Source: Polytrichum commune (lineage: Eukaryota; Streptophyta; Polytrichopsida; Polytrichales; Polytrichaceae). Taken from it: a stretch of 64,000 nt of DNA. The stretch lies in the NCBI GenBank assembly GCA_950295325.1, contig OX485804.1:62898533-62962532 (forward strand), given 5' to 3'. Below are positions 1 to 64,000 of the stretch, in pieces (positions within the stretch are counted from its first letter, which is position 1; every line of letters starts with the position of its first letter). Both the position numbers and the translations under genes were made by a program. Under the pieces are notes generated by a model, which made no database searches, was not told the DNA's origin, and saw nothing but the letters and a program-made list of their open reading frames with translations.

Positions 1-2501
1 ACATCACGCACGACCTCCCAGAGTAGACCGACAAAAAAATCCCAGATTCTCAATAATAGCATCCAACAACTATCAGCCAGTGAGTGTTGTGATAGGGAGT
101 GCACTAGATATTTTCCCAGGGAAGAGGCACTTGCGCTACGAACTGAGTTTTACACTTGTTCTCCACGGATGAGACATGCTAAACAACTCGAGGTCCATGG
201 CCAATTACATGTACTACCTGGATGCTCAACGAAGGTCGTTACCTTGTGTGGTCGCAATGTGTGTGAAAAAGCATGGAGACACATATTTGCCGTCTCCAAA
301 ACGACGTTCTATAGGAACCGTTCAGAATTCAAGAGCGGTATGCGTCCACGCGATCATGGGAACCTAAACATGAAACGGAATCGAATATCCACCCAACAAG
401 CTACTGCAACACTTTCGACTTTATTGGAAGACAAAGCAGATATGATGCCTCACAAGGCTCGCACATTGCCAAATGGCACACGTGTTGTTGAAATGGTATT
501 GCCTCGCGGAACAAAATGGAAGAAGTTTCTGGTTACAATCAATGAGGTAAGCATTCGATATGACCCAATTATCCGCTTTGTATGTGTCGGTCAACCACGA
601 GGTGTGTTTGTGGGTATTTAATAGACACGAATGGGTAATCATTAACATATCATATACGATATGGATCGAGAAGCATGTGAAGTATTATTAATGTTAAGTT
701 ATTTCTATATGTGCAGGTTAATAAGAAATGTGGTGTGCTCCCAATCTCTCTTTCAACTTTGAGCAAAATTCGGAATACCTACTTTAAGCACTACATAAAG
801 AAGAGGGTTGGTGACAATTTTGCTCGTTGTGGGAAGTGTGATTCGTTTTCCGCAATTATACTTCAACATGTGAAAGGTTCAGCTGCACACACAGGGTTTT
901 CGAAACAATTGGAGAAGCACCAAGCGCAGCAAGAATCAGCTCGCAATGCATACCGTTGCATGAGGGCTCTTTCAATTGAGCATCCCCGAAAAGTGTTGAC
1001 GATTATTCACGACAAAATGGATCATGGTAAAACCGCATCTCCTTGTTTTGCCTCCAAGAACAAAGATATTGATATGTTTACAAAGCTACCACTTTATGTA
1101 ACAGGCATGATGGCACATGGACATGGAGATGAGAGATATGCCCACTATGCACTTGACATATACCCTGGAGATTGCAACCATACTGTAGGATCATTCGTGA
1201 GACTTCTACGTGATTTGGAGGAACCACCAATGTCATCATCCCGGAGTCTTTTTCATGGTGCTGGGCGGTCACCTCTTTATCGTGTTGTTCTTCATGGGAG
1301 CGAAATATGTTTGCAAGGGTTACGAGTCCCACCCACGGAGCCCATACCGGCAATTCCTCTTCCACCCATTCTGCACGTTCAGCTTGATAATTGCTGGAAG
1401 GACAACAAGTGTAGGTTCGTAAAGGCATTCTGGTCTATGCTCACGGCGAAAGAAATATTCACGGAGGTACATGTGTCTTATCTATTGGTTGGCCACACCC
1501 ATGACGACATCGATGCATCATTTGGAAGATGGAGTATGGACCTGCGCGAACACGACTACCCCACTATCCCCCTTCTCATGAAATCATACATGGATATGGA
1601 AAAGGTTCCTGTCATTCCACACATGATAGAGGAACTTCCAGATTGGAGATCATACGTTAGGGAGCATATCCCAAGTGGTAAGGAGAAACTCATTGGGCAC
1701 ACAAAGGCTCAACAGTTCAAATTCTATGTCCGAGATGATGGTTGGCATGTTATGCAATACAAAGTGCTTAGCACGCATGAGGAGTGGTTGCCCAAAGACG
1801 GTGTGAAGATGTGGAAATCCAATATAAAAGGGGAGCCCTATCTTCCATCCGGGGACCCCTTTCCTGCACCACCGCGCGGTATGGCAAAACTGGAGGAAGT
1901 GGTTGTGGGACTGCAAGGGTTCATTGACTATTGGCAATCAATATGTGACCATGACACGACAGGAGCATATATGGGTTCACACATGCATATTTTGCAGTAC
2001 TGGATAGGGGTGAAGGAGGCATTAGAGACACCTCTCAGAAACGTATACACTGCTGGGCATGCATTATGGGAGGGATTCTGGCCACGGAGTAGGGTCGAAG
2101 CAGATGCACATCCATTCATGCAGAATGGAGAGCTTCGGGAAGAGCACCAACCGGACGACCATTATGTTGGTCCAGCAAACCTTCGTCCTGCAGCTGCTTT
2201 CCGCATTGCGGATAATGTGCACGAGGGGCATATGCTAATATTGCGTCCCCAAGAACAAGATATAGGTAGACCCATTTGGGTTTGCCGTGTTTTGTCTGGA
2301 CCGAACTTGGCGGTCACGGGAGAGCATCCACGTCAAATACTTGTACAATGGTTCACTCCCACTTCAACCGCCAGAGACCTATCAAAGAAATGGAATGGCT
2401 GGGACTCAAATCCTAACTTCAAGTGGAAACGTGATTTGAAGTACTCCGTTCCCGACTGGCAGCCAATCGATTGCATTTTGGCAGCTTGGCCTCTGCCATA
2501 A
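1..2501 (+). CDS. DUF7869-type transposase-like protein, 5' end outside the window
   Basis: The frame is open from base 1. Exon 1 ends at 546 on a GAG|GTAAGC donor, a phase-0 intron follows (547-716, acceptor GTGCAG), and exon 2 runs 717-2501 with TAA at 2499. The N-terminal part has a CCDREC cysteine cluster followed by the helical stretch that usually precedes DUF7869. The core carries three acidic blocks typical of the family: HDKMDHGK near 1008, QLDNCWKDNK near 1380 and GHTHDDIDASF near 1492. These resemble the acidic residues of an RNase H-fold (DDE/D) nuclease, so a transposase origin is likely, but no activity is shown for the family as far as I know. No terminal repeats were found because the left end lies outside. 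The same frame stays open after the stop to 2699, so this copy may be slightly truncated. Family assignment is firm; function is inference. Confidence 0.8.
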
Positions 2502-34254: not shown

Positions 34255-37200
34255 CTAAGCAGCTATGAGATCTGGTGTTTCTGCTTCAACAGCTAACAAT
34301 GTTGTATGCACCTTCTGCAGCCAATTGTCTAGCCTGTCTTTCAACGCAGTAATCTGAGGAATCCCCAAAACTCGTGGCTGTACCCATGACACACGGACAG
34401 TTCCATCAACTTGATCAATCACCCCCTCGATGAGATGTACCTGCAATACCAAAGCATCCTCTATTAAAAATGAATGTCTATTTAAGACATGAACTTGAAG
34501 ATCAATGATAGACCTTGCAATACAAAAGAAAACATGCTGAGAGTAGAATCATACAGATAGACTTTTGATGAGCAGATGCTCCACTTCGTCCATAGAGAGC
34601 TGTGTCTTTTCAGCAATCAAACTGAGAGAAATAGTTCTCTCCTCAGATGGGCGGCTGCAAATCAATCAGTAAATCAGTGATAGTGAGCAAGGTGAACTGA
34701 TAAAATAACAGAAAGACGAATTTAGATGTATGGAGAAGGCAAAAAGGGTATTGAGAAGTTGTTGGGGAAAGTTTCAGAACAACATTTAAATAGATAAACT
34801 ACCTAGTGCAAATCAAAATAACTTACATATCTTGCAGACCTCCCAAGTAAAAAGGTCATCATTTGAAGAACATCTCTTCATCAAATTAATTGCTCATTGA
34901 TCATTTTAGATGTTTGTGGAACTTTACCTGAATATCAATTCCATAAGACACAGAATGTTGATCTTCTCCCAGAGTTTCTTCTCATTCTCAATAAGTGCAG
35001 GTTGAGCTGTCAGTTGAGCTTGATATTTACTACAGAGCTCTTTATACTTGGCTAGATCTCCAGCATTGAAAGCTTGCAAGATGAAGTACAACCATTCAAC
35101 ATTTGTCCCCATCAAACTCTTAACCTGCACATCACACAGTAATAGAACCACATGTAAGCAACCAAACAAAAGCAATGTATCATCTAAAAAATGACACAAT
35201 TCAATATTGATAGTATTTAAATACATCCTTGCAATAGCCAACAACATTCAGAAGAGGGGAAGAACATGCTCTTAAGAGCCATTAAAGATCCACCTAAATC
35301 AAAACACTACTATCCCATGCCTCCTACCATAGACCATTCCTGAATCCTTAAACTACATACACAGAACACAAACCAGGAAGATGTACCAGATGGCCCATAG
35401 AGGAGCAAATCAACCTACAATATAAGAATTTTCTGCTCCCACACCCTAAACAGATTCCTTAACATTAAATCAGAAGTCTCATGGGACACCACGCATATAA
35501 CACTTATAACAAAGCCCAGTTGCGTTGATGATAATAATGACCACGTTAAACAGAAGCTCCAGAGGAGAGGTGGGTGGCAAATGACACCCAGAATACCAGC
35601 AATACAGTGTGCAGATGAGGCAAGATGTATTACAATAGGGTGAGCAAGAAGCTCTCCAAAGTTGTAGATGTTCTCCCCCAACAAAGCTGCCAATGAAAGA
35701 TCAAATGCAATATCCTGAAACATGACAGGTCACACATTAGTATATGACACACAAAAATATTTCTACAAGCTACTTTCTATATAAAATACAAAATTTAGGT
35801 CTGAGAAACTCCTCACACAATACAATATTTAGATATTCCTGATCATCCAGCATTGTAAAGAACATGTCCTGACCCGTTCAGTTATAGTGCATACACTGCC
35901 TACTCTTTTGTATGAAATATTCACTTGTGAAGCGTCATGACCGGGCTCAATCAAGAGCATGAATGACTTCCTTAGTAGAATTTAGGTTTTCAGCTGATCC
36001 TTCCTCTCCACCAGGCATGAATGAGGTCATAATAAATCCAGTCCGATCTAATCTCTAAGGTGAAGTGATCAAACAAAGAGAAAATGGAGGTCAGAGTATG
36101 TCAGAAGAAAAATAATCGTGAGGAAAGAGATTAGTCCGGAATAGGGGAAGAGTGACAGGAGAGAATGACCAGTTTGAAGTCTTCTGACAAAGTCTCCACC
36201 GAGGTATAAGCTAAATATAGCAATGCGCTCTTGTAGAACTCGGCAAATTCTTGTCGGGACTTGTGGTACTGTGAGGAGACCCAATGCACACTCCCATGAA
36301 CTGATGGATCAACATCAGTCATGTTATCCAATGTGGTTCTCCCTTCTTCTAACAATTTTTTGCATTCCTGTTGCTCCCCACACTGCAGCTTCAATGCAGC
36401 AATCTGCATTTTCACATAAACTATGGGCTCTTCCACACGTCTCTCCCCTGAGCTCCGAAGCTTGTCAATGACATCCTCCAGATACTTAATGGCAGCATCC
36501 TTCTCAGGATACTGCTTGGATATTATGACAGCAAAGTGCGCCAGCTTCAAAAGATTGATCTTGGTCTCAAAGTCTCGAATGAAGTTGTGGTAAAGCTGTA
36601 CAAGAGCATCTCCAGCCTACAGACAAACAATCGCATATGCCCAATCAATTCCGCAAATTTCTTCTCAAACCCCGCACACAAATAGCAACCAATTTGCACC
36701 AAAAACCTAAACTCCAATTCTCACCAAGTAGCTCACCCGCACATCCAGTATGATTCTTCATCATTGTAAGACTACTCCGGCCACGCTACTGTTCATAATG
36801 CTGATTACCAACTCCACATGAAATAACAGAACGCAACATGCAGAATGGGATATGACATACTCCTTCTCAAAGCCCAAGCAATAACCCTAAGTACACAAAT
36901 GGCGATCAATTTGCACCAAAACCTAAACTCCAATTCTCCACCAAGTAGCTCCCCCGCACATCCAGTATGATTCTTCAACATCGCAAGACTAATCCAACCA
37001 TGATGCATCCAGAGAGGGCTCGATATAATTAACTATAAATCCAAGCTACTGTTGATGATGATGCTGATTACGAACTCCACATCAAACCGTGGCACGGCAA
37101 GGATGGGAAACGGGAAAGTGACATACTTCTTTTCAAACCCCGAACACTAACCCTAGGTACACAAATAGCAATCAATTTGCACCAAAAATCTAAACTCCGA

Positions 37201-49060: not shown

Positions 49061-50053
49061 GCGCAAAGTTCAAACAATTCTGCTCAATCCCATGTGGGGA
49101 AAGTTAGTATGCGAGCGGAGAGCGGAAAACACAATTTGAGACATGAATTGAGAGGAAAAATGCACCTATATCCGCGGGATTTAGGGAATATATTTGAACT
49201 ATTTTTAGAAAAAATTAGGATTAAGGTACTCTATTACCGTGGAGATAGGCCAACATTTTCCCATTCATAACGTTTATAGGTTTTGAAACATAGAAATATT
49301 TTAATGAAATACAAAATTAGGGCTTACATCAGCATGACGTTATCAATACAATATCCAATCACGTGTACTAACATTCAAAAAACATAGTAACTTCAGAAAA
49401 CATAGTGATTTCAGAATACATTAAAAAACTATATAGAGGGTAGGGCACCTCAATAAACACAATGCCTATGGTCATAATCAGAAAGTAAAGAGAATAACCT
49501 TGAATAGGGGCCTCTTGAGGTGGCCACTTAACTGGTGAATAACCCTAAAAGGTTGTTGATTTAGTTAAAATATTAATATTGTGGCATGTACGCTAGCTCG
49601 CATGATGAAATACGTACTGAAACTAATCAAAATCCACACTTAATTGATATATGGAAAGAATTTAATTCTAGAGATCACAATGCTATTGCATTATATATGC
49701 AATTCTATCAATGAAGTAATTAGGTTAAATTATGAATTATGATAACGTTGCAATTACTTTAACTATCCGATTAGATTAATCCCTTCGTTTACATTAACAC
49801 TGTAATATGTTTAACAATGAATGTGGTGTCACTCTCTAAGTGGATTACTTGAACTTTGTATTTAGTTGGATCGTGCATTTAAATTCGTTTAAATGGACGA
49901 CATCAGATTATACAATGATTATCTTCAATTTGGGTGTTTTAATAAAAACGGTGCCTCGTATTTAATAATCATGTGCCATCATCTTAAATAAACTAGATTC
50001 AAATGCAAAGGAGTACATATCATAGAATAATAAAATCCAATACAAAATGGAGG
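49061..50053. other. AT-rich intergenic, downstream of the methyltransferase-like gene
   Basis: No frame, RNA gene or repeat recognised; the right end probably includes the 3' UTR of the minus-strand gene ending at 50054. Confidence 0.5.
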
Positions 50054-51241
50054 TCAGGGAATAAACTCATCCTCACTCTCCGAAGCACTCTGATCTATGA
50101 ATCTGAGTACTCTAGGATCGTATCTCAGACGTGGACTAGAAGAGGCACTAGAACTAGGGGAGGAGTTATTGGCATAAGCTACTGCCATATCCTCTGCATA
50201 ACAAGAAAGTCGCATGCTAGAACTAGGAGGTGAACCGTAGTCTAGTGAGCGTCGGCCTTGAACCATCAGACTGCACCAACAGAGGACAAATGACGATTGT
50301 TAGAATCCTTCAAATTAAATGCAACATATTCGAAAGATAAGTTTAAAATGACAAAAAACTTACTCACATAGATTAACTGCACCCTGTTGAGGGAGGGTAT
50401 CGTCGTCATCGTCAAGGTCTACAAAGTGGGTTGGATCGACCCCCTGAGAGTCCGACCCTGCGACCTGGAGTGGCTGCAAGAGTTCTTCGTACAATTCCTT
50501 GTCTCCCTCAAGTGCCACTATTGCCCTGTTAGAAGATTGTGCTGCAAGAATCGAGGCACCTACAAAGACCAAAATAAATGAATTAGTCGCATGTGATTGA
50601 ATTGCCTAAGTCTTGAGAGATAAGAATGTTGAACAAAATACTCATACCAGTTTCAGCAGTGAGGTCACATATAATCCCCCCTGGAGGGCTAAGGCCACTG
50701 ATTAGAAGCTGAAGCAAGGACATTGCCTTCTCTTTAGGGCCCCTCCAGAATTTGTCACCGTCCTTGCGCTTGAGTGCAATATCAGCGGTGACAATGTTGA
50801 AAAGAACGTCATCACTTGCAAGGTCAACATCCTCAAACTCGTCACTAGAAGAAATGACAAACTCCTTCGGTTGCCTAACCAAAGGTGTGGAGAAAGACCG
50901 AACCAGCACAATCGCTTTGAATTTCAGAGTCTGGACAACAACCATATGCCTGAATTGTTAGCAATGTGATTCTAGTCATGAAGGACTGAGAACTTGAAGA
51001 GCAAATTCACATCAATATACAGTCTAACCTCAAATCAAAAACCACAATATTTGCCCCTAATCTAAGGTTGCCTTCCCCTTAACTCAGCACATTCACATAC
51101 ATATGCTGCCGAAGCACATATTAGAAACCACAACATCTGCCCCTAATATATGGCTGCCTTAACAAAACCCAACAAATACACATACATATGCTGAAAATGG
51201 TTAAAATTACGGACCCGCTTGGAGTTATGCATAGGGTGAGT

Positions 51242-51244
51242 GAG
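51242..51244. repeat. Left target-site duplication GAG
   Basis: Identical to the trinucleotide at 62436-62438 directly after the other CACTA terminus. Confidence 0.9.
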
Positions 51245-51289
51245 CACTATAAGAAAATCCTGTTTTTTGTGACGTAAAAAAAAACGGGA

Positions 51290-51800
51290 GTGCGCGTTCA
51301 CTTTGACATGGAGGTTCTTCTCTTGGACGTCACCTAAAATCCGTCATGTCAGACAGGAGAAAAACGCGTCGTGGACATGCGAAAACATGGGGAATTTCAG
51401 CACGTTTTTATGTGACGTCACATAAAACATGGTGTTCCATAGTGTCCACGTGAAGACACGTGGACGCCACCGGCATGCCACGCAAGCATGTTTTTTGCGG
51501 GCAGTGCCACGTCGGCACGCTTTTTTTTCCGCCCCCTCGGTGACGTGGATGGCCTCATGGACCCTCTTGAGATGACGTCGAATGCAATTAAAAACTGACG
51601 TGGCATTCGCTGTTGCTGACGTGGACATTGCATTACGTGGCGATGTGTGCTGTTACCGACGTCCTCTGCGACACGAAAATGTCACATGAGACATTTTCCT
51701 CGACGTATGCATGTATTTTTTGGGTGTTTTCGAGGTGACTTTTAGTTTTCTTGGATATCCTTTTTGACAGTGGGATGTTATGTGTGACATCAAATGGGGC
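51290..51800. promoter_or_regulatory. CACTA left subterminal repeat cluster
   Basis: Around ten copies of TGACGT(G/C), GGACGTC or close variants in either orientation (for example 51328, 51415, 51541, 51573, 51597, 51619, 51658). In En/Spm elements such clusters are the binding sites of the TnpA-type protein that pairs the ends. A smaller cluster lies near the other terminus (62190-62400). Confidence 0.65.
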
Positions 51801-54800
51801 ATTACAAATTATGGGGATGTCCTCTGGCCAAAACCATAGCTTGTTTGGGAGTGATGATGTCGTTTTCAAGCTTAGCCCGCCTTGACGTGGCTGATTGCCT
51901 CAAATTCTCAAACACATTACTGACATCAAGTTGTTTGGCTATTAGCATGACCAAATGTCAAATGCACGTCACTTATGCCATCTACGAGAACAAACACCGA
52001 CATCAACTGTTCCACCAGACAGTCGGAACAGACACAAAGAACGCGTGGAACAAATGTACACCAATGCTTTCCAATTCCGTAAATGCAACGTTTTCATTGA
52101 TACAACATATTGCAACCAATAGGCTGCATTTACACATCAATCGCTAGTTGCCCAAAAACTTAAACATTGTCCATGATCGAGGCATCCATGTCTATAGTCG
52201 CGAGTCTACACCTCCACGACTAAGTGGATAATTCATGAGCACTCGAATGGAGAGCCGCGTCGTTATTGAGAACGTCCACTTATTTCTTCTTTTGTGTCTG
52301 TGCCTTCGTACTAGTCCCCACCTGCCCCATTCCACCACCATTCACAAAACCGCATGAATTACATTAATGGTCATCCGAACATGAAATGGACTCACACGAA
52401 CGACGTGACTATATTCGAGTGCTCCACACTCCTCCTGCAATCATGCAAGCAATGTAGGCATGCAAACACTAGTTCTCTTACCTTCGCAAGATTTTGGGGA
52501 GGTTTAGGCAAACCAACCGCTTTTGGTGCACCGAGTTTGGCCATTGAGGATTTCGCTTGTGCGCTTCTACCCGCACGGCGGGGTCGGCCACCTGACTCCT
52601 CCGATACGGGCACCTCATCCTGTAATAACATTCCGCATTAGTACTCGGAGGTTTCAAATTATGGTTGTTCTGTTCTGCGATAATTCAAACTGTCAAGGCA
52701 AACGTCCAGCCTAATGTACATGTTGACATCCTCAATGACACCACGAAGAACATGCCAGACAAATACATGAAGGTATAATTTTTTAAACGACGATGAGAGG
52801 GTTTCCAGTATGTCTAATATGGGTGGGTGTTACTTGATGTTACCTGATCCAAAGATGCAATCTCTTCAGGCACGTCCGCATTGCCGGATATCTCAGGGTG
52901 TCCTTCCTCGACGTCCTCCATAGCTTGCACTGGCACTTCCTCGTTGGTGGGTTCTACAGGGTCATCAATTACAGGTGTCTGTGTCGTTTTTTTCGGCACT
53001 TCAAGAATGTCCTCAATTATAGACGCGATAATGGTTTCAGAGCTGGGAGGCACTGCTTCTACGTCTGTGACTGCATCAGTCGCAGCATCCTCGGAGACGT
53101 CGCTCGGGACAGGAATCGCGGACGCCACACGCATGTCCGCACCGCCCACCGCGCTGATAACTGGGGTGGGAGCTTGTTTCTGTGCCACCATCACCAGATC
53201 CTCCGTCGTTGACGTCAATGCCGAAATATCGAGCATCTTCGCAGACGATGAAGGCTCCGTCATGCTATCAATGTTAGTCGGATGTTTCTGACTTTGATTC
53301 TGAAGAATCATTCGTATCATGTCCTCCATGCGCTTGTTTGAGGCTGCCACATTCTCTCCAAGGCGTGTGACGCTGCCCTCCAAATCCGTCACTCAAGTGC
53401 GCATCGACTCCATTTCCGAGCCATGATCGGGACGCGCTCGGCGCTTTTCCTCCTGTATGCGTTGGTACTCTTTGGCAACCTCGGCGTCAACCTCCGCATC
53501 GTACGGTGCCCTGTTCTTCAACATCGCCTGCATGGCACATTAAAGTCATTACGGATGAAAGGGGACGTCGACAACAATGCGTTCCAACAGGTGCAGGTCC
53601 CGTGACGTCTTTGGAAGTGCCATGATTAACATCGAACATCTACTCAAACAACTAGAGTTACATTGCCGGCTCATCGGACGTCTAAGTAAACGTGTTGGAT
53701 GACATCTGTTGTCGACATTGACATTGTAGGGGATAAGGGCCATCACAGATTTATAAAGAGAATTGCAACATTGTCAGCCATGTCAACATAGACATAGTGG
53801 CACTCTTACCAGACGGGAGACGACCTCCCTTTCAATAGCTTTCAGTTGAGCTGTGGTCGATCCTTTCCCTTTTGAAATTGAGCGCATGTGCTGAGACTTC
53901 AAATGCGCAGCCTCGGTGGCGCGCATACCTACAAGTGTTTTCCAATGCTCTGCATCCACATCGGCTGGTTTACCCGCATTGTTGTCTATGAGCTGGTTTA
54001 ACCTCCACCGGGTGTTGATGAGTACCTTTGTTATAATAGGCCGCATCCACTTCTCGCACACTTTGTCACAATGCCCGCACATCTCCCAGTCTGCATGCCG
54101 GACACACACGTCAATGCCATCACATTCACTTCACAAGCGACCAACACTGGGTGCCCACACTACACCCACGTTAGAAAGGGTACAAACCGGTATGTCACCA
54201 CAAGAGAGAAAATTGATATCATCGACGTCCCTATGGACGTCGATAGCGATTGTCGAGCGTTTCAGTACACATGTCCACAAAAACGCACGGACGTCCTGTT
54301 CGGCATCCACTCACAAATTGTCAGCATGACACTCTGTGCTAAATACATGTCCACCCTGACGTCAGCAAGAATGTCATGCCTGCCTACATAGACATACACC
54401 CTATTGCTCATGTCCAGAATGATGTTTGGTTGCATTTAAAATGTCAGATTCGGGTTTCACATCGCAAATTAACGCGACACATGCATGCCAAAAAATTGAT
54501 GTGCAAACCTTACCTGTGTATAGGCGTTTGAATAATCGCTTCCTCTCGTGCCGTGGCTGGCCTTCCCATCCCGTCGTGGGATCCAGGTCCTTTGCATACT
54601 TCTTGATGTCGGCGCACAGGACAGCCTTCATGGCGCCAAAAGGCTGCCCTTGCGCATCCAGCTCCACACGTTTCTTCAAGGCAGTGCTCCCCCCTCCCTT
54701 ACGTGTTGGTAGTGGATGTGATGTTTCAATCCCATCACTGTTCTCCTGATCGCCGTCTGATTCCGTGCCCGAGTTGGTTGCGTATCCTCGGCTACAACAA

Positions 54801-55163
54801 CCACATTCCACAATCAAGGAATCTCCAGGTGCACACATATGCGACTACCCACTGAGCTTGAGCAGCCACATTGCAACCAGTTACTGCCCCTATGAATCAT
54901 ACACGCAGTCAAGAGCATGGTCGAGCAACTTCAGAGTTCAGGAAGATTACCAATCACGATGTTCAAGCTGGTTGAGTGTGAGAAATGGCCATCTGAGGGT
55001 TCAGAGTACAAAAAAACTACCCGTCACACGTGAATTGGTTGAGTGAAAGAAATAACAACCTGGATGTTGAGACTTTCTATTGTCACCCATTAATATATGG
55101 ACCACAACAACATGGTCTAATGTTTGAGTCGTCCTACCTAAACCATCTTGAAATGGGTTCTTA

Positions 55164-55330
55164 AAGACTGCAGATTTGTTTTCTTGGTTTTCCAGCTGCA
55201 ATTTCAAGACTTTGGGGGCATGTTATATACCGCTGGAAAGATATTTTCAATACCTTTCCAACGGTATATAACATGCCCCCAAATTCTTAAAATTTCAGCT
55301 GTAAAACCCACAAAACAAATCTGCAGTCTT
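55164..55330. mobile_element. Foldback MITE with TTA target duplication, nested in the CACTA element
   Basis: Two arms of about 77 bp starting AAGACTGCAGATTTGTTTT and ending in its inverse, with only about seven mismatches, share the block TTTGGGGGCATGTTATATAC. The apex is only a few bases. TTA precedes (55161-55163) and follows (55331-55333), the duplication expected of Tourist/Harbinger-type MITEs. It lies in an intron of the TnpA-like gene and its transcript would form a long hairpin. Confidence 0.85.
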
Positions 55331-55450
55331 TTAGTGACTGCAGATCAGGGTGGTCAAAAGCTCATGGTCCCATAACCGTCGTCAAAACCCCAAGTTGCAG
55401 GTATAAAGGAAAAAATTCATGGAGCTCCAGGGAGCTGGAGCGTGGCGTGG

Positions 55451-55475
55451 TCTGTGTCTGTGTCTGTGTCTGTGC
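55451..55475. repeat. TCTGTG hexamer microsatellite
   Basis: Four uninterrupted TCTGTG units inside the TnpA-like gene region. Confidence 0.8.
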
Positions 55476-56481
55476 GTTGCTACATTGATCCAAAATTGTG
55501 CATTCTTCTGCCCAATTGAACTGGTCGAACAGGCGCGGACATCGCGACGATGAAGACTGGTTGTGCTCTACGCTAGCATCAACACCAGGAAGAGGTCAGG
55601 AAAGGAGGAGAAAGACCCACTTACCTCCATGATTGCTCCGGCACGTCCTCAGCCGCATCCTCCTCCTCCGATGATACCTCGATTATGCGGCGGCGTCTTG
55701 CTGGGGGTGAGCCACGCCTCCCAGCCACATGCCGCGGGTCCTCTCTGGCCTTGGATCGCCGCTCTCTAGCTGCGCGCCTGTGTTCTACCAATGTTGCTGG
55801 AGACATCTCCTTACGCTTCCTAGTGCGATCCCGTGTCCGCAACATCTTGGACACCCAAAAGCAACACAAGGGCGTGGGAAGGCAGCGCAGCGCCGTAGGG
55901 AAAGCAACACATCGGTGTTGCAGCAGACACCACAATGGAGACTAGCGGACGTAGGTAAGAGGATCTATGCACCTCGGCATCGGAGAAGACCTATGGCCGA
56001 CTGTGACCCTATGCCCAACCCACTGGAGGCCGTACAGGCACCTAAAACCGGGGGCTGCCGCGTGTCCGCATGCGGGCTTCCCAGTGCCAGTGGCCGAGAG
56101 CGGCGAAAAATTTCGTCGCACAGCAAAATTTGAACTTGACCGTGACCTGAATTGTGATGCATGCATATGAGATGGAAGATTTACCTATTTTGGAACTGGG
56201 TTGATAGCGATGCTCGATGACTCAGTGGGTGTTGTGAAATTTTCACTCCCAAAGAAGTTGAGCAAGCGTGAGCGGCGGCGACGGTGTGCACGTTGGGTTC
56301 TTTGAATTGTATTGGGTTTTTGGGATGGCATCATTGCATTCTTCTCTTCGCATTCAAACACCAAAGTGGACAACACTGCAGCGGCCTCGGAGTCATCCGC
56401 ATCCACCCTTTGCGGATGTTGTGATGTGTCTATAAAATGAACAACCCTACCAGGCTTTCGTGCTGAACGCGACACCGCCAT

Positions 56482-57088
56482 GCTGCTAAGGGATGTTCAA
56501 GCAATGAGCGTATAAAGGTGAAGCTGCAACACTTAGGGTTTAGAGAATGTCGGCGAGCCTTCTCAGGGTCCTCTGGGGCATCCACTGCCTGGAATACCCT
56601 CTGGGACACGTGGGAAAAGGTCAGTTACATTGTTTTTTTACTGGTGTCGTAGATACCAGTGTTTTCTTGGACGTCATGTAAGACACCCAATGCGACATGT
56701 GCTTAATTCGAACACTGTGCACTCCCCATTGTGTGCGGGAATGAAAGATCCAGGTCATCGACGTGACCATTGTGGTTTTGATGTTCTGCAGCAGTCAAAT
56801 CCCTCACGTGGGTGTGTATGGAACACATTGCCGTGTAGTGTGTGACCTTCATTTTGGTGTCCAGGAAGATGTCACAATTGACGCCGACAGATCAACAGCA
56901 ATGTCCCCATGGACATTCTCAGTGACATCCACCCTGGAAGAGACACTCCGCATAGTGTCAACGAATGGTGTCCTCTGTTTATATCAATGCTCATGCGCAA
57001 CACGACCACGCGGAGACCTTGCGGAAGCGTTGCAGGGTGTGTAACATCGGCCCAGTGAGGTAACATCTTCCAATTCGGGACACGCAAC
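56482..57088. promoter_or_regulatory. Divergent spacer between the two CACTA genes
   Basis: This 607-bp stretch separates the TnpA-like ATG (minus) from the transposase ATG (plus). It contains further ACGT/GACATC motifs like those near the termini (for example 56670, 56757, 56869). Presumably a bidirectional promoter; no TATA box assigned. Confidence 0.45.
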
Positions 57089-60000
57089 ATGGGTTCGGCT
57101 GTGCGTCGTGGTGCAACCATTCGTTTGACGGACGATGGACGCACACTTCGTCACGTGCCAATAGGGGATTTGATACTTCACACGGAGCTCCGCGTGGCGA
57201 CAGAGAACAATGTGCACACATTTAGATGTCCTTGCAAAGATTGCAAGGGTGGACGCAGAAAAACCATACAAGTTATACGGCAACACCACGCGGCAGTTGG
57301 CCGTGATCCATTTCTAACCAAGTCTTTACTAGGCGGTGACCCCGTCGATGGATACCCACCGTCTGGAATGTGGGTGGAGGACGTCTGTTGTGACAACGAC
57401 GTTGTAGAAGACATCCCTTCGAACACATTACCTGAACCCGTGGACGCCGACAACGGGGCACTTCCCCCACCCCTCCTGGATGAATTCCATGAAGTTGAAC
57501 GTCAGGTGCTGGAGGCACTGGGCAGAGGGGATGCACTCCACGAAGAGGCCGTAGCTAAAGGACGTTTGCATATGGAGAACGAGGAAGACGGCGACATCGA
57601 AGATGAATTGGATGGTTTGTATACGGAAGCCACGACTTCAGTGTACCCGGGTTCAAAAATGAGTGTTGTGTCCGCCACGATCATCATAATGAACATGTGC
57701 TCGGTGTTCCGTGTGAGCAATACATTTACCGATGAGTTGTTCCGATTTTTGTCTGGAGACTTGTCACCAATGCCCAACAAGTTGCCCAAAACTCATTATG
57801 CGGCTCGGAAGAGTATCCGTCGACTTGGATTGACCTACAACAATATCCATGCATGCCCCAATGGTTGTATTCTATATGACGAAGAATATGCAAATCATGA
57901 TTTATGTCCCAAATGCACGGCGCGACGATGGCTGGATGGCAGCAACAACATTCCCGCAAGAGTAATCCGTCACTTTCCCCTAATTCCTAGGTTGAAACGG
58001 ATGTGGCGCTCGTCTGAGATAGCGCGTCTATTGACAGGTCACACCAAACACGTCAGCAGTGATGACATCATGCGTTCTGTGGTTGACAGCCCTGCATGGA
58101 ACACATCAACAATGACGTCGCGTTTGGCAACTTTGGGCGTGACGATAGGAACATGAGACTGGCTCTCGCTTTGGACAAAGTGAATCCTTTTAAACTAAAC
58201 AACACCAACTGGTCGACGTGGCCGGTATTGATTTTGATTTACAATTTCGAGCCATGGTTGGTGACCAAAAAGTTTTTTATCTCGTTGTGAATATTGATTT
58301 CCGGGAAGAAGTTGCCGTCCTCTTCAAACATTGATGTGTTTATACGACCGCTTTTGAAGGAGCTACAAGGGCTTTGGTATGGTGTTGAGGCTTTAGATTT
58401 CTCCCAACCACAAGGGAGTCGCACTTTCACTTTGCGTGCCATACTTATGTGGACCATTTCCGATTTTCCCGCTTTCGGCCTCATTTCTGGTCTTACTTGT
58501 AAGAGCTACAAGGGGTGCCCTTGTTGTGGACCAAACACTGATGCGAGGATGGCAAAAACCGGAGACATGCTTCCAAATCGGAGCATTAGGGGCACCAAAA
58601 TTGTTTACGGCGACATTCGTCGTTATTTACCCCGTCACCACCCGTATCGCCGGAATAGGAGATTCAATGGGGAGGAAGAGGAACGTCCTAGGCCAAAACC
58701 GATGTCGGGGGATGATATCATTCGATACGCAGCTTGGCGCGATTCATACCTACAGATGGGCGGGAGAGAGAACGGACCCAACGATCCTGTGCATGTCACA
58801 GGCGTCAAAAGACTTAGTGCGTTGTTCGAGCTGGAATACTGGTAGGTGATTCCCGTATAACAATTAATGTTTGCACATCCTGTCCACAGATGTTGAAGTG
58901 GACATCGCGACGTCCGTCTTAGTCACGTAGTTTGTAATGATGTCCACCAAGACATCTGACCTGACGCTTCAGGCCATGATGATTACCAGCTTTGCTCATA
59001 CGGATAGACGAGGCATGCATGTGTCCATGAAAGTGCTGGCAATGTGTCTGAAATTGCCCATGTGTCTTGTGCAGCACCTGCTAGAGCGTCACATCCTCGA
59101 TGTTATGCATTGTGAGAAGAATTTGTGCGAGAACTTGTTGAAGACATTGTTTGGAATGAATGATAGTCCTGGAAGCAGGGTCGACGCGGAGGACCTGGGA
59201 ATACGCGAAGAGATATGGTTGCAACCCCCACGGCGGCCAATGATGGGTACTATATGCCGCACGCTCCCTATGTTTTTAGGCCACATGAACGCGCGGAGTT
59301 TGTTGCAATCGTCTCCAATATTCACACCCCCACAAACTACGTGGGTAGCATTCACAAGCGCCTAGCGGATGGGAAATTGCAGTACATGAAAACGCACGAC
59401 TACCATGTTCTCATGCAATAGGCAAGTCAAGAAGGACACCCTCGGGGATGTCAATGTTGTAATACAATGTATCAATGTGTCATAGGAGTATAGGCACACA
59501 CCGCATGATGTCTACTGAGACCTCATTCCAAACATGGTTAACGCGTCAACATCCTGGGGGACGTTATCCTCAAACTGTTTTCGCACTCCATGTTCTTCAT
59601 GACGCTCCTAGATGTTCTGTCTGATGTCCAAGGGGGCGCGACACAATCGTTCTCTGACTTTCTAAATACATGTCTTCCAGATTCTTCCAGTGGCTATACG
59701 CAACCTATTGGATGAAAGCGTGCGCGTAGCTATTATCAAACTGAGTAGAGTGTTTCAGAGACTATGCGCCAAGGAGGTGAAGAGAGGCGACAAGGAGGGC
59801 ACAATGTTGGATGTGGTGATGGTGACGTGCGTCATGGAGAAGGAGTTCCCTCCCACATTTATGAATGTCATGACGCATCTTCCCGTCCATTTGGTGGAGC
59901 AGTTGTACACGTGCGGTCCAGTGCATTGTCGATGGATGTATCCCATAGAACGGTACATGAAAACGTTGAAAGATTACGTTCGAACATTTGCACATCCGGA

Positions 60001-61342
60001 GGGTAGCATAGCGGAAGGTTATCAAATGGACGACACGCTTGGTTTTTGCACGGAGTACATGCATTAGTACAGAGGAACTACACATCGTGTATGGGACGCT
60101 GAAGAGGATGCAACCATGAACGATGAGATTCTCCGTTGCAACTCACAACAAAAGCGAAAGATGTCCGACGAATTCCGCAACTATGCGCACGCTTTTGTTT
60201 TGGACAATACGTCGTCATTGGAGCGTTGCAGAGAGTTAGTGGAACCCATATTTACTTTACTTCAAGCCTCGATGATATATACTGTCACCCAATGCAAAAT
60301 ACCTGTGCCATGTCAACTGTGACATGCAGCAGTGCATGAGGATGTGTTGGACATGATGTCCCAAATGACATTCTTTCTGAGATATACGCGTCACATGTGA
60401 TATTGCAGATGATGGCCATCACACTTTTGCATCACCTTTATATACATGCAAGGGCCATTTCTAACCACAATTTAATGGCATACAACCTTGTACAGGGAGT
60501 TTATGGCAGCTAGAGTTTCGCGTTGGAAAGAGAGGGAGGCCTTTCGGAAAATGTGTCGCCGCCGGCATCCAACTTTGGCAGTGTGGTATCCGTTGGAACT
60601 ACACGATCTTCCTCCCTTTGCAACATGGTTGACGTCGCGTCTGTCATGTCAGCATTCCTCCGGCGAAGTTGTGGACGTCGATGTTGCGCAATACGCGCAA
60701 CCTCCCGAGCGATATGCAATCTCACACCGGAAAATGTATGCGTTTGGCATGCACTTCTGAGTACGAGGTGATGAGGGTGGCCTCGTCACGCGCGATTCAT
60801 GTGTGGTGGCCTCATTTACACGACAAATACCATGGGGCTTGAGAAATGGGCGACCCATAGAGACAACCGAGGAGTATATGGGCTACATTGAAGAGATCTT
60901 GGAGCTAGACTACCGAAATCATTGCACCACTGTGCTAGTGTGCGATTGGGTTCGCCCAAGTGTAGATCCTCGACACCCTAACATCACACGGGATCAATAT
61001 GGTTTCACCGTTGCGAACTTCAACCGCATGGATGGCAAAGTGCACTCAAACTCTTTTGCATTTCCATTGCATTGTCAACAAGTTTTTTTCTCCAATGACC
61101 CGACGAGGCCAGGATGGAAGGTTGTATGTCGCACGGACGTGAGGGGTAGACGTGGGCAACTACAAACCAACCAGACCTTACCGCGCATAATCGATGTCGG
61201 CCACGATGCTGACTTTGTGGGTTTACAACCACAAATGCAAGATGTAGAGCCCACTAGAGAGCCCGCAACGGACGGCGGCATGCACATCCCAGCCTCGTTG
61301 GATGTTCGTGGGGAAGAAGAAAACGAAGGAACACAGTATTAG
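57089..61342 (+). pseudogene. CACTA Tnp2-type transposase with DUF4218 and DUF4216, degenerate
   Basis: ATG 57089. The first exon has FRCPCKDCKGGRRK (transposase-associated domain), then HACPNGCILYDEEYANHD and CPKCTARRW. A 1-nt frameshift near 58100 leads into RNMRLALALDKVNPF and STWPVL; TGA at 58288 interrupts, then TISDFPAFG and CPCCGPNTDAR follow to a donor at 58842. The next exon from 59075 has HILDVMHCEKNLCENLL. A second frameshift near 59230 precedes GYYMPHAPYVF and KTHDYHVLMQ, then TAG and a GC donor. The exon from about 59680 begins ILPVAIRNLL and includes the DUF4218 signature GPVHCRWMYPIERYM and EGSIAEGY, with TAG at 60065. The last exon, from 60496, has TGA at 60758 and then DUF4216 (ILELDYRNH, DQYGFTVANFNR, QQVFFSNDP) to TAG 61340. 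All pieces are in family order, but at least six lesions abolish function. Confidence 0.88.
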
Positions 61343-62184
61343 TGGTTACAACCCAAAGCACCTACAGCAACGTCACATCACACATGGCATGCAATGTATA
61401 AGGTTGCGTCACAAGGGACGCCTTGCTGGAGAGGAACCGACTGTCAAGGCTGATGTCTACTCGGGTGTCCGCGGAGACGTCCTTTGTGTTCAAACAGACG
61501 GATGGTCATAATTTTCTAAGCACTAAGATTTTCCAGTAGCAGTTGCTTGTCTATATGTGGAATGTGGCCACGAGATCCAACGTGGGCACTCCCACGTTTG
61601 GCGCATGTATTTTTGGAATTGTGAGAGCAATGAAGTGCCATATTTTGCTTGCAAAAGTCTTCCCTTGATTTCCTCGTGTCTAAATGTACAAATATATAAC
61701 CTTTGAAATCCTTTGAAATCAAAATCAACATATGACAAACTAAATTATAAACAAGTGAATGAGAAAACATTCATTTTGTAGCAAAACTTGAAATTTCATA
61801 ATTTTTCTATTTTAATCCAAAGGGCATTTTTCCACTTTAATTAATTATTCGGCTAACATGTGTTGAACCAGCTATATATGAACCTACGGTATGCAATTGT
61901 GGTCCTGCATGTCTACCTTATGGCAATTAGAGAATGACTCAACCATCCCCGTGTTTTTTGGCTCATCCGCTACAAATATTTGAACGGAATTCGGGAGAAT
62001 AACATGCATGCCAAGAACCATATTGATGCACCGTGAGAAATTTATGTGGCATTCCCTCAAATTTTTGGGAACAAGTTTGTCTTTTATAGCCAACCACACA
62101 TAGTTGAACATTCTCCAACCTTTTTTCCCGGGCAGCACTTTAAGTCTGCCCGCCGCAACTTTATACATGCCGTGGATAGACCTG
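61343..62184. other. CACTA 3' non-coding part
   Basis: Between the transposase stop and the right subterminal cluster. AT-rich; the frame at 61884-62240 (-) has no domain. Confidence 0.5.
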
Positions 62185-62400
62185 TGGGGATGACGTGGCG
62201 TTAGCGGCCTTACAAACGGCCCGACGCAGGACGTCAGCATGTTTTAAATGACATCCACAAGAACATGGCTATCCTTCCTGACATCGTCATGTCCTGGCCC
62301 ATGATCTGTCATGTTTCACGCAACGTCCACTAAAATCTGCAATTCTGTGGGCGTTTATTGCCGAACATAGTGACATCTCAGAAGACATCACTCGTTTCCC
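62185..62400. promoter_or_regulatory. CACTA right subterminal repeat cluster
   Basis: Motifs GATGACGTGG, AGGACGTCAG, TGACATCCAC, TGACATCGTC, AACGTCCAC and AGACATCAC match the left cluster in type; some show TGACATC, the form expected after CG decay of TGACGTC-like sites. Confidence 0.55.
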
Positions 62401-62435
62401 CAAAACGACCCCAAAAACGCGGGTTTCTTATAGTG

Positions 62436-62438
62436 GAG
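62436..62438. repeat. Right target-site duplication GAG
   Basis: Pairs with 51242-51244. It is also the last bases of the host coding exon before the element, read CTC on the minus strand. Confidence 0.9.
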
Positions 62439-64000
62439 GTGGAGAGAATTAACGACGGTCCATTCTTCCTTGACCTCTAGATTGTTGTTGTAGAGATAAA
62501 AGCTCAAGACCTCCTTCTTGATTTGCACGCTGTCAGGATAAAATAGAAGTAGAGCCCCGTTGTCATGAAGATAGCCTTGACAAAACCCAATGATGAACTT
62601 GATGAAGTTTGGAACCTGCTTATTCCAATTTGGAACTTGCCGTGGGAATTCGGAAACGCCAGGGACAGTCAAACCATCGGGATACTTTGCAATAATGAGG
62701 TCCACCGCACCCTTCTGCACCACCTTGCCTGAAAAGAAGAATTCCATGGATGCTCCAACCTTTGTTTCAAAACAACCATAGCGTTTAGTAGAGAATTAAT
62801 TGGTGATTAGGGGCATGCTAGCTAAATTGAATGGGAATGAAGCTGGATATGTACCTCACTCAGAAAAGCAACCATGTCATCGTACGTGGAAGGGAATTTG
62901 TTGTTTTTTGCCTTATAATCCAACATTCCGTGGAACGAGTCATTGAGTATGAGAACCCGAGGAGAAGCAGAGGAGGAGGTCCACACCTGGGAGGACAACA
63001 TTGCCTTCACCGCAGGTGGGATAAACCTGATCGTCTTGGCTTGACTAGGAGCTCCGAGGTGAATACGCTTCGGAGCATGTGCACGTGGAGGATGAGAGCT
63101 GAGAGGCTCTGCAAGTTCAACATTTGGAACACCGATATCACTACCTGTTGCACGAATATCTTCATCCATTGGCTCCTCAACCAACTCAACAACCTTCCGC
63201 TTGAATCCCCGAGGCCTACTCCCTTTAGTGGCCGTTTTGCTTCTGGAGGAGCCACCTTTGGGGGGTGTGGGAGACTGTGACGCTGGAACTGAGGCAGCGG
63301 GAGAAGGTAAGAGAGGTTGGATTGAGTCCCTCAGTGCAATGTCAAAGGGAGGAGGTTTTTTCAACGGGCAGTCCAAATACCACCCGCATTGGTGAAAGTG
63401 AATTGGATCCCATGTTTTTAGAATTGCAGGAGTGAACATGGAATCTGGACTTTGGATATCCATGTTGTTAGGGAAAAATGTGGTACCTTAGAGATGGCCT
63501 TCATGGGTAGGAGAACGTACCGAAAATACCTGTAAAGAACCCTGCGGACAACCTGAACAAAAAAATGTTGTTTCTTCGGGGGGTTGTTCTTGTGAGCACC
63601 GTTATCTCCACCCAACTCAATGAAGAAGGCAAACTCCCAAAGCTGACACCTCATCGCTTCGACGTAATCGAAGATCGTAAAGATCGGATCTTCGCCATCG
63701 GGATTGTAGTCAATAATTTCCCCAAGGTCAGTGATAACACCTGAAAAGAGCTCCTCAACCTCCACTGCTATCTGAGGCCATGCACACAAAAATGTTGTCT
63801 TATTGGTTGCAATCAAATGAGCTCATTAAGGGTCAATCAAATGACAACATGAAATGTGAGATGAATATTAACTTACGCCCACCATGTTGTCCGATTGAGC
63901 CAGTCCGGAAACTTGGAGTTGGCGAAGCTAGCCTTCGGAAAGCGATGCGCACCCCGAATTGCCGCAAAGGAGTTCCACCTTTGGAGCCACTTCACCATCA

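What the first reader, a model, noticed from the sequence alone, without database searches (positions are those of the whole stretch)
50054..64000. 11-kb CACTA element inserted within an exon of a DNA amino-methyltransferase-like gene
The element ends are exact (12-bp inverted repeats, GAG duplication). They lie inside the coding exon just after residues EEWTVVNSLHL. Skipping from 62436 to 51241 keeps the frame open for 18 more codons and ends on a strong GTATGT donor in the phase the next exon needs. So the allele was intact before insertion, and an empty site is predicted elsewhere. A silencing target sitting in a gene that may itself belong to a DNA-methylation family is a notable combination.
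Basis: seen in the sequence. Interest (0 to 1): 0.75.

Follow-up and report, generated by a model that had tools for sequence, protein, structure and literature searches.

The report
CACTA transposon nested inside another transposon
The interrupted "gene" is not a host gene but the cargo of a second jumping element; the nesting is ordinary, but that cargo descends from DNA methylases, has been kept by selection and has lost the usual catalytic motif, which makes it worth a follow-up.

Summary
The CACTA element is real: window 51245-62435, 11,191 bp, 12/12-bp inverted ends, GAG duplication. It lies in an exon. Six of six paralogous copies first read show the exact empty site, so the two halves belong together. 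The interrupted "gene", however, is the second gene of a Mutator-like DNA transposon with conserved ends (64 exact left ends) and 10-bp target duplications (exact in 10 of 13 end pairs that I chose). The window copy spans about 56.8 kb, beyond the window. The cargo lies divergent from a transposase at 43 of 96 listed places, against 0.4 expected. Between subfamilies its dN/dS is 0.08-0.34, and 13 copies encode an identical 203-residue stretch. A profile of seven cargo groups matches the adenine methylase CcrM (E=1.5e-05). Canonical [D/N/S]PP[Y/F/W] was seen in no cargo copy read. Likely function, inferred: a transposon-borne, catalytically altered DNA-binding accessory factor, possibly anti-silencing.

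The parts
51245..62435 (+). CACTA (En/Spm-type) element, 11,191 bp; young family
   Evidence: 12/12 inverted ends; family copies at 97-99%
51242..51244 (.). GAG target duplication, left copy
   Evidence: empty site in L002-L007
62436..62438 (.). GAG target duplication, right copy
58291..61342 (+). CACTA transposase pieces: PF02992 (58291-58845, profile 76-208 only), DUF4218 (59666-60067), DUF4216 (60761-61342)
   Evidence: a copy at C6:25156193 whose DNA is 99% identical over 801 bases has PF02992 1-208 in a 600-aa frame
49096..64000 (.). part inside the window of the Mutator-like element that holds the CACTA; it continues to C2:63004469 (about 56.8 kb in all)
   Evidence: left end, right end and 10-bp duplication AATCCCATGT at both; a transposase match at C2:63000551, 93%, one TAG
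49086..49095 (.). 10-bp target duplication of the Mutator-like element (right copy at C2:63004470-63004479)
49096..49125 (+). left terminal sequence of the Mutator-like element
   Evidence: 64 exact copies of the 29-mer 49097-49125 genome-wide, reversed control 0
62436..62795 (-). cargo exon A, 5' part, with motif IV (window KYPDGL, most relatives EYPDGL); 5' boundary of the exon not established
51215..51241 (-). cargo exon A, last 9 codons before the conserved donor position; donor here GTCCGT (51209-51214)
50646..50930 (-). cargo exon B with motifs X and I (window CDLTAETG; L002-L004 CDLTAGTG)
50366..50557 (-). cargo exon C (coding match)
50057..50260 (-). cargo last exon D, runs to a stop; 5' boundary not established
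62855..63636 (-). cargo exon U1, frameshifted near 63,480 in this copy
63885..63998 (-). cargo exon U2 (3' part, continues outside the window); the exon with the DGNHRLQAW motif lies at L001 574-1029

Best explanation
A young CACTA element jumped into the cargo gene of an older Mutator-like DNA transposon. SHOWN: the cargo belongs to the transposon (ends, duplications, a preferred divergent arrangement with a transposase, dispersed copies); it is related to beta-class (permuted) DNA amino-methyltransferases; the canonical catalytic [D/N/S]PP[Y/F/W] was found in no cargo copy read; the gene changed under purifying selection between subfamilies; the youngest subfamily carries a very different version beside a similar transposase. 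INFERRED: the protein no longer methylates in the usual way and serves the transposon as a sequence-specific DNA-binding accessory factor, most likely anti-silencing (as VANC does in Vandal elements), or else assisting transposition. The CACTA insertion disrupts one of many copies, a copy that today also has other lesions, so no effect on the host is expected.
For: Empty sites in 6 of 6 copies. Ends: 64 exact left ends, 122 right ends within 1 mismatch, reversed controls 0. Exact 10-bp duplications in 10 of 13 chosen pairs, one 8/10. Opposite-strand transposase 5' of the cargo within 25 kb at 43 of 96 listed places; random placement mean 0.39, maximum 3; other arrangements 4, 2 and 1. The same arrangement in more distant cargo groups: 24 of 54, 8 of 68, 5 of 7 and 4 of 7, random means 0.01-0.32. 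Pairwise dN/dS 0.09-0.24 (methylase exons) and 0.08-0.34 (upstream exons) between subfamilies, window row and saturated pairs left out. PF01555 in 8 of 9 composites, best 4e-06. Seven-group profile: CcrM 1.5e-05, DpnA 5e-04. 13 copies with an identical 203-aa stretch. Transposase dS 0.51-0.52 but cargo dS saturated between the young element and the window's subfamily.
Against: No functional data of any kind. The transposase is not found by PF10551 (none of the 150 listed PF10551 places lies within 3 kb of the 137 listed transposase places); SWIM is below its cut-off; the profile comparison with MULE domains has a probability of only 1.4%. The window's own composite scores 14.6 bits for PF01555, far below the cut-off. 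The group with the best PF01555 scores (L048-L050) was not linked to this transposase (1 of 8 PF01555 rows), and one of its three reads has DIPY, close to canonical. 53 of 96 cargo places had no transposase hit within 25 kb (cut lists, insertions, decay). 2 of 13 end pairs had no duplication. 10 of 17 rows had stops in the exons read, and the window's own subfamily shows pairwise dN/dS from 0.44 to 3.9. The ParB-like exon was found in 14 of 19 copies; that it and the methylase exons form one transcript is inferred from order.
Confidence: 0.72

Rival explanations
1. The cargo is still an active DNA amino-methyltransferase (4mC or 6mA) with a non-canonical motif IV, marking transposon DNA for its own benefit.
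For: Selection preserves the domain; motif I is kept in most relatives read; L048 reads DIPY; PF01555 above cut-off in L048 and L049.
Against: Second Pro and aromatic residue are replaced in all groups but for the Tyr of L048. In rotifer N4CMT, changing SPPY to APPA abolished activity (PMC8885841, passages).
Confidence: 0.15
2. The cargo is a passenger host-gene fragment, as in Pack-MULEs, with no role for the element.
For: Mutator-like elements often capture genes (PMC6446971, PMC13317346, passages); many copies have stops; within subfamilies dN/dS ranges from 0.36 to 3.9.
Against: Low dN/dS between subfamilies, presence in several divergent groups and in the young identical set, and co-residence with a transposase.
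Confidence: 0.08
3. One reading: a host methyltransferase-like gene, intact until the CACTA insertion.
For: Exons join and an empty site exists.
Against: 50 other listed places of the same gene, inside a transposon with its own duplications; other lesions in the window copy.
Confidence: 0.03

Closest known systems
CACTA (En/Spm) superfamily
   Same: Termini, 3-bp duplication, TNP2 transposase, DUF4216/DUF4218
   Different: Nothing notable; ordinary member
Mutator-like elements, especially Vandal/Hiun with VANC (PMC6446971 and PMC13317346, passages seen)
   Same: Target duplication length (10 bp here, 8-11 in the family); transposase plus accessory gene in one element
   Different: Cargo is methylase-derived; PF10551 not detected; homology to VANC not tested
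Beta-class DNA amino-methyltransferases (CcrM, DpnA, RsrI; PF01555)
   Same: Homology across the domain; permuted order with motif IV before X and I
   Different: Catalytic motif altered; intron-bearing; carried by a plant transposon
Bdelloid rotifer N4CMT (PMC8885841, passages seen)
   Same: PF01555 domain in a eukaryote; that paper states that the rotifer enzyme has no eukaryotic homologs
   Different: N4CMT has catalytic SPPY, shown activity and a chromodomain; not described as transposon-borne in the passages seen
ParB-methylase fusion on small contig C12 (L047), probably a bacterial or phage contaminant
   Same: ParB-type domain (by eye) upstream of a PF01555 methylase
   Different: DPPY intact; similarity to the cargo only over motifs X-I (E=0.01, probability 4%; E=6.8e-05, probability 63.5%)

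Membership tests
CACTA | CACTA/TAGTG inverted ends | tested here: met
   12/12
CACTA | 3-bp target duplication | tested here: met
   GAG, and empty sites
CACTA | TNP2 transposase | tested here: met
   PF02992 118.2 bits, cut-off 28.6
Mutator-like elements | 8-11 bp target duplication | tested here: met
   10 bp, exact in 10 of 13 chosen pairs
Mutator-like elements | terminal inverted repeats (often long; some members lack them) | tested here: inconclusive
   short imperfect ends sharing TATG[C/T]GAGCGG
Mutator-like elements | PF10551 MULE transposase domain | tested here: not met
   no hit on the transposase pieces scanned; none of 150 listed PF10551 places near the 137 listed transposase places. 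Hence called Mutator-like, not filed as a member
Mutator-like elements | second catalytic Asp followed by CxxH (motif recalled) | tested here: inconclusive
   hhalign E=0.035, probability 1.4%, in the expected register; unrelated control E=0.2, 0.3%
Mutator-like elements | SWIM zinc finger | tested here: inconclusive
   PF04434 16.7 bits (E=0.0055) and 14.1 bits (0.036), cut-off 19.6
Beta-class DNA amino-methyltransferase | PF01555 homology | tested here: met
   L049 35.3 and L048 32.4 bits, cut-off 26.7; nearest listed relative of the window copy 24.6 bits; window composite itself 14.6 bits
Beta-class DNA amino-methyltransferase | catalytic [D/N/S]PP[Y/F/W] | tested here: not met
   EYPD, EYHD, DYPD, DLPE, DIPE, DIPD, one DIPY
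Beta-class DNA amino-methyltransferase | methyl transfer to DNA | not testable with these tools
   no assay or methylation data
ParB N-terminal domain | Pfam or solved-structure match | tested here: not met
   no ParB match; only DGNHR..A by eye
VANC anti-silencing factors | loss of methylation on related elements | not testable with these tools
   needs methylation data
VANC anti-silencing factors | sequence homology to VANC | not tested
   no VANC sequence was compared
Pack-MULE | captured fragment without transposase, not selected for the element | tested here: not met

The most novel reading that the evidence does not exclude
A plant lineage harbours a large Mutator-like transposon family that turned a DNA amino-methylase into a self-serving, sequence-specific anti-silencing factor whose specificity is swapped between elements by module exchange; the replaced catalytic motif would mark a reader or blocker of DNA modification in place of a writer, or a new chemistry.
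Probability: 0.3. Interest if true: 0.85.

Novelty: new variant of a known kind. Interest (0 to 1): 0.55.

Why it matters
The nesting itself is routine. The cargo matters because it offers a conserved, recently mobile, testable case of a methylase-derived gene working for a transposon. If anti-silencing is right, it would extend transposon counter-defence beyond VANC to a different kind of protein, and would show one fate of amino-methyltransferases in eukaryotes. It also warns that PF01555 genes annotated in such genomes may be transposon genes without the usual catalysis.

Tried and rejected
Host-gene reading: rejected by copy number, ends and duplications. Phage collection: two records of one phage, Tsukamurella phage TIN2, at E=0.2 over 25% of the query. 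Viral contigs: one match, 31% over 59 residues, E=9e-6 relative to the candidates only, not read further. Prokaryote genomes: one degenerate pattern, 60 stretches, none a relative. ParB membership: no match. PF10551: no match. Single-sequence AlphaFold of exon A: mean pLDDT 40, unusable. Transposase profile against solved structures: one hit at E=0.24, an unrelated hydrolase. I saw listings, plus passages of PMC6446971, PMC13317346, PMC8885841 and PMC12454661; nothing seen describes this cargo, but the library lacks most subscription papers. Species: not identified. It is a plant's genome (34 chlorophyll-binding matches; about 408 Mb, of which seven contigs over 42 Mb make up some 406 Mb); that it could be a moss is recall from chromosome number, not a result.

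Full report
THE INSERTION. The CACTA element lies at window 51245-62435 (11,191 bp), with identical 12-bp inverted ends and GAG on both sides. It has Transposase_21, DUF4218 and DUF4216 pieces on the + strand. PF02992 covers only profile positions 76-208 in one frame here, while a copy whose DNA is 99% identical over 801 bases has positions 1-208 in a 600-aa frame, so this copy's frame is probably interrupted. The family is young: 32 of 40 scored left ends and 31 of 40 scored transposase stretches, the window's own included, are at least 97% identical.

THE EMPTY SITE. A protein joined across the insertion finds 51 places at 77-98% identity for exon A, the window included, in a cut listing. 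The first six copies fetched (L002-L007) run through the site uninterrupted; their alignments to the two window flanks overlap by exactly the 3 duplicated bases. The two halves are one gene.

THE HOST IS A TRANSPOSON. Copies end abruptly at GGGGAAAGTTAGTATGCGAGCGGAGAGCGG. The 29-mer from its second G occurs 64 times in the genome, its reversed control 0 times. The other end, GGACGA[C/G]ACTTGTATGTGAGCGG, was searched by its inner 20 bases: 122 places within one mismatch, control 0; many of these belong to related subfamilies. I chose 13 pairs of ends: 10 have exact 10-bp target duplications, one 8 of 10 bases (L005/L008), two none (L023/L024, L002/L040). For the window copy the duplication is AATCCCATGT at window 49086-49095 and at C2:63004470-63004479, so the element spans about 56.8 kb, the CACTA included. 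A transposase match lies near its right end at C2:63000551 (93% identity, one TAG).

SUPERFAMILY. The transposase has a SWIM-like zinc finger below the Pfam cut-off (16.7 and 14.1 bits against 19.6) and no PF10551 match; none of 150 listed PF10551 places lies within 3 kb of the 137 listed transposase places. A profile comparison with MULE domains of the same genome aligns the expected Asp and CxxH, but at E=0.035 and a probability of 1.4%, against 0.2 and 0.3% for an unrelated control. Mutator elements have 8-11 bp duplications (PMC6446971, passages seen). I call it Mutator-like and do not file it as a member.

THE CARGO. Nineteen copies, the window included, were compared exon by exon. Exons A and B are present in all 19. 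The exon with DGNHRLQAW was found in 14, exon U2 in 17 and U1 in 18; where found, they keep one order. Some fetches are too short to show absence, others (L006, L012, L013) may lack exons. The gene lies divergent from the transposase. Of 96 listed cargo places, 43 have an opposite-strand transposase hit 5' of them within 25 kb; random placement gives a mean of 0.39 and a maximum of 3 in 500 draws, and the three other arrangements give 4, 2 and 1. For more distant cargo groups the counts are 24 of 54, 8 of 68, 5 of 7 and 4 of 7, against random means of 0.01-0.32. The group of the 577-aa copies was not linked (1 of 8 PF01555 rows), so its transposon status is untested. The window's own transposase is missed by the 25-kb limit. 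Tandem repeats of about 180 bp lie on the 5' side of the DGNHRLQAW exon (L001 1164-2053; also seen among L002-L005).

WHAT IT ENCODES. PF01555 (N6_N4_Mtase) matches 8 of 9 composites, best E=4e-06; the first member has 24.6 bits against a cut-off of 26.7, and the window's own composite only 14.6 (E=0.032). Two 577-aa copies exceed the cut-off (L049 35.3, L048 32.4 bits). A profile of seven cargo groups, one sequence each, matches the solved adenine methylases CcrM (E=1.5e-05, from just after the DxP of motif IV to motif I) and DpnA (5e-04), and weakly RsrI (0.072). In the DpnA alignment motif IV falls on DPPY, but that piece alone is not significant (2.4). The motif reads EYPD in most copies of the window's and nearby subfamilies (KYPD in the window, EYHD in L006 and L017, a stop in place of the Glu in L005), and DYPD, DLPE, DIPE or DIPD elsewhere; one of three 577-aa copies read has DIPY. 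No cargo copy read has [D/N/S]PP[Y/F/W]. In rotifer N4CMT, SPPY to APPA abolished activity (PMC8885841, passages seen). The ParB resemblance of the upstream exon is by eye only; Pfam and solved-structure searches gave no ParB match.

SELECTION AND ACTIVITY. By simple pairwise counts (no test of significance), dN/dS between subfamilies is 0.09-0.24 for the methylase exons and 0.08-0.34 for the upstream exons. Left out of these ranges: the window row (0.14-0.22 and 0.17-0.46 against other subfamilies; it has a frameshift), pairs with the 50%-identity group (dS saturated or nearly so), and loci L006 and L020, which were not in the table. Within subfamilies the ratio is 0.36-3.9, as in decaying copies; 10 of 17 rows have stops in the exons read. 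The youngest subfamily has 13 copies whose 203-aa cargo stretch is identical. One of them, read from end to end, has a 762-aa transposase frame and a 416-aa cargo frame; its SWIM part lies in other frames with a stop between, so I do not claim that it is intact. Its transposase differs from the window's subfamily by dS 0.51-0.52, while the cargo is saturated and 35-40% identical. That points to exchange of the cargo module between element lineages; very fast cargo evolution is not excluded.

The GTATGT donor lies in an intron expansion of the window's subfamily. The donor in other subfamilies is 9 codons after the insertion point; in the window and L002-L005 it reads GTCCGT. The window copy has further lesions: a frameshift in U1, Gly-to-Glu in motif I, Glu-to-Lys in motif IV. 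Whether they came before or after the CACTA cannot be told.

MECHANISM. Shown: a transposon-borne, methylase-derived gene with low dN/dS between subfamilies and an altered catalytic motif. Inferred: it serves the transposon. Vandal elements of Arabidopsis offer the closest working model, with an accessory protein, VANC, that causes hypomethylation of related elements (PMC6446971, PMC13317346, passages seen). I put the accessory or anti-silencing reading first, an active methylase second and passenger DNA third. None of this was tested functionally.

VERDICT. The reported combination is an ordinary nested transposon. The object underneath, a methylase-derived gene conserved within a Mutator-like family, is a new variant of a known kind as far as the literature listings could show.

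Noticed in passing
window 681-2498 (+): 606-aa open frame with DUF7869 (PF25273, E=5.2e-41), probably part of another mobile element; a 206-aa frame lies just before it.
   Followed up: no
window 36134-36616 (-): Part of a proteasome subunit gene (PSD13_N, E=1.2e-39), a likely ordinary host gene.
   Followed up: no
L047 646-2148 (contig C12), L046 1453-2196 (contig C10): Small contigs of the assembly encode methylases with intact DPPY; L047 fuses a ParB-type domain (by eye) to a PF01555 methylase. Probably bacterial or phage contaminants.
   Followed up: partly
L048-L050 (C1:9662150, C4:44111740, C7:16294677): A separate group of long, apparently single-exon relatives of the cargo (577 aa in two of three) with the best PF01555 scores; one reads DIPY. 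Not linked to the transposase studied here.
   Followed up: partly
C3:33921831-33972058: Two cargo copies with identical search scores in inverted orientation about 45 kb apart: segmental duplication or assembly artefact.
   Followed up: no
C5:1751760-1846160: Cluster of 14 chlorophyll-binding protein matches with identical scores.
   Followed up: no
C3:13620721, C3:58495019, C3:12063849: Three transposase relatives at 65-66% identity lie in open frames of 2390-2527 aa, far longer than the 762 aa of the young subfamily.
   Followed up: no
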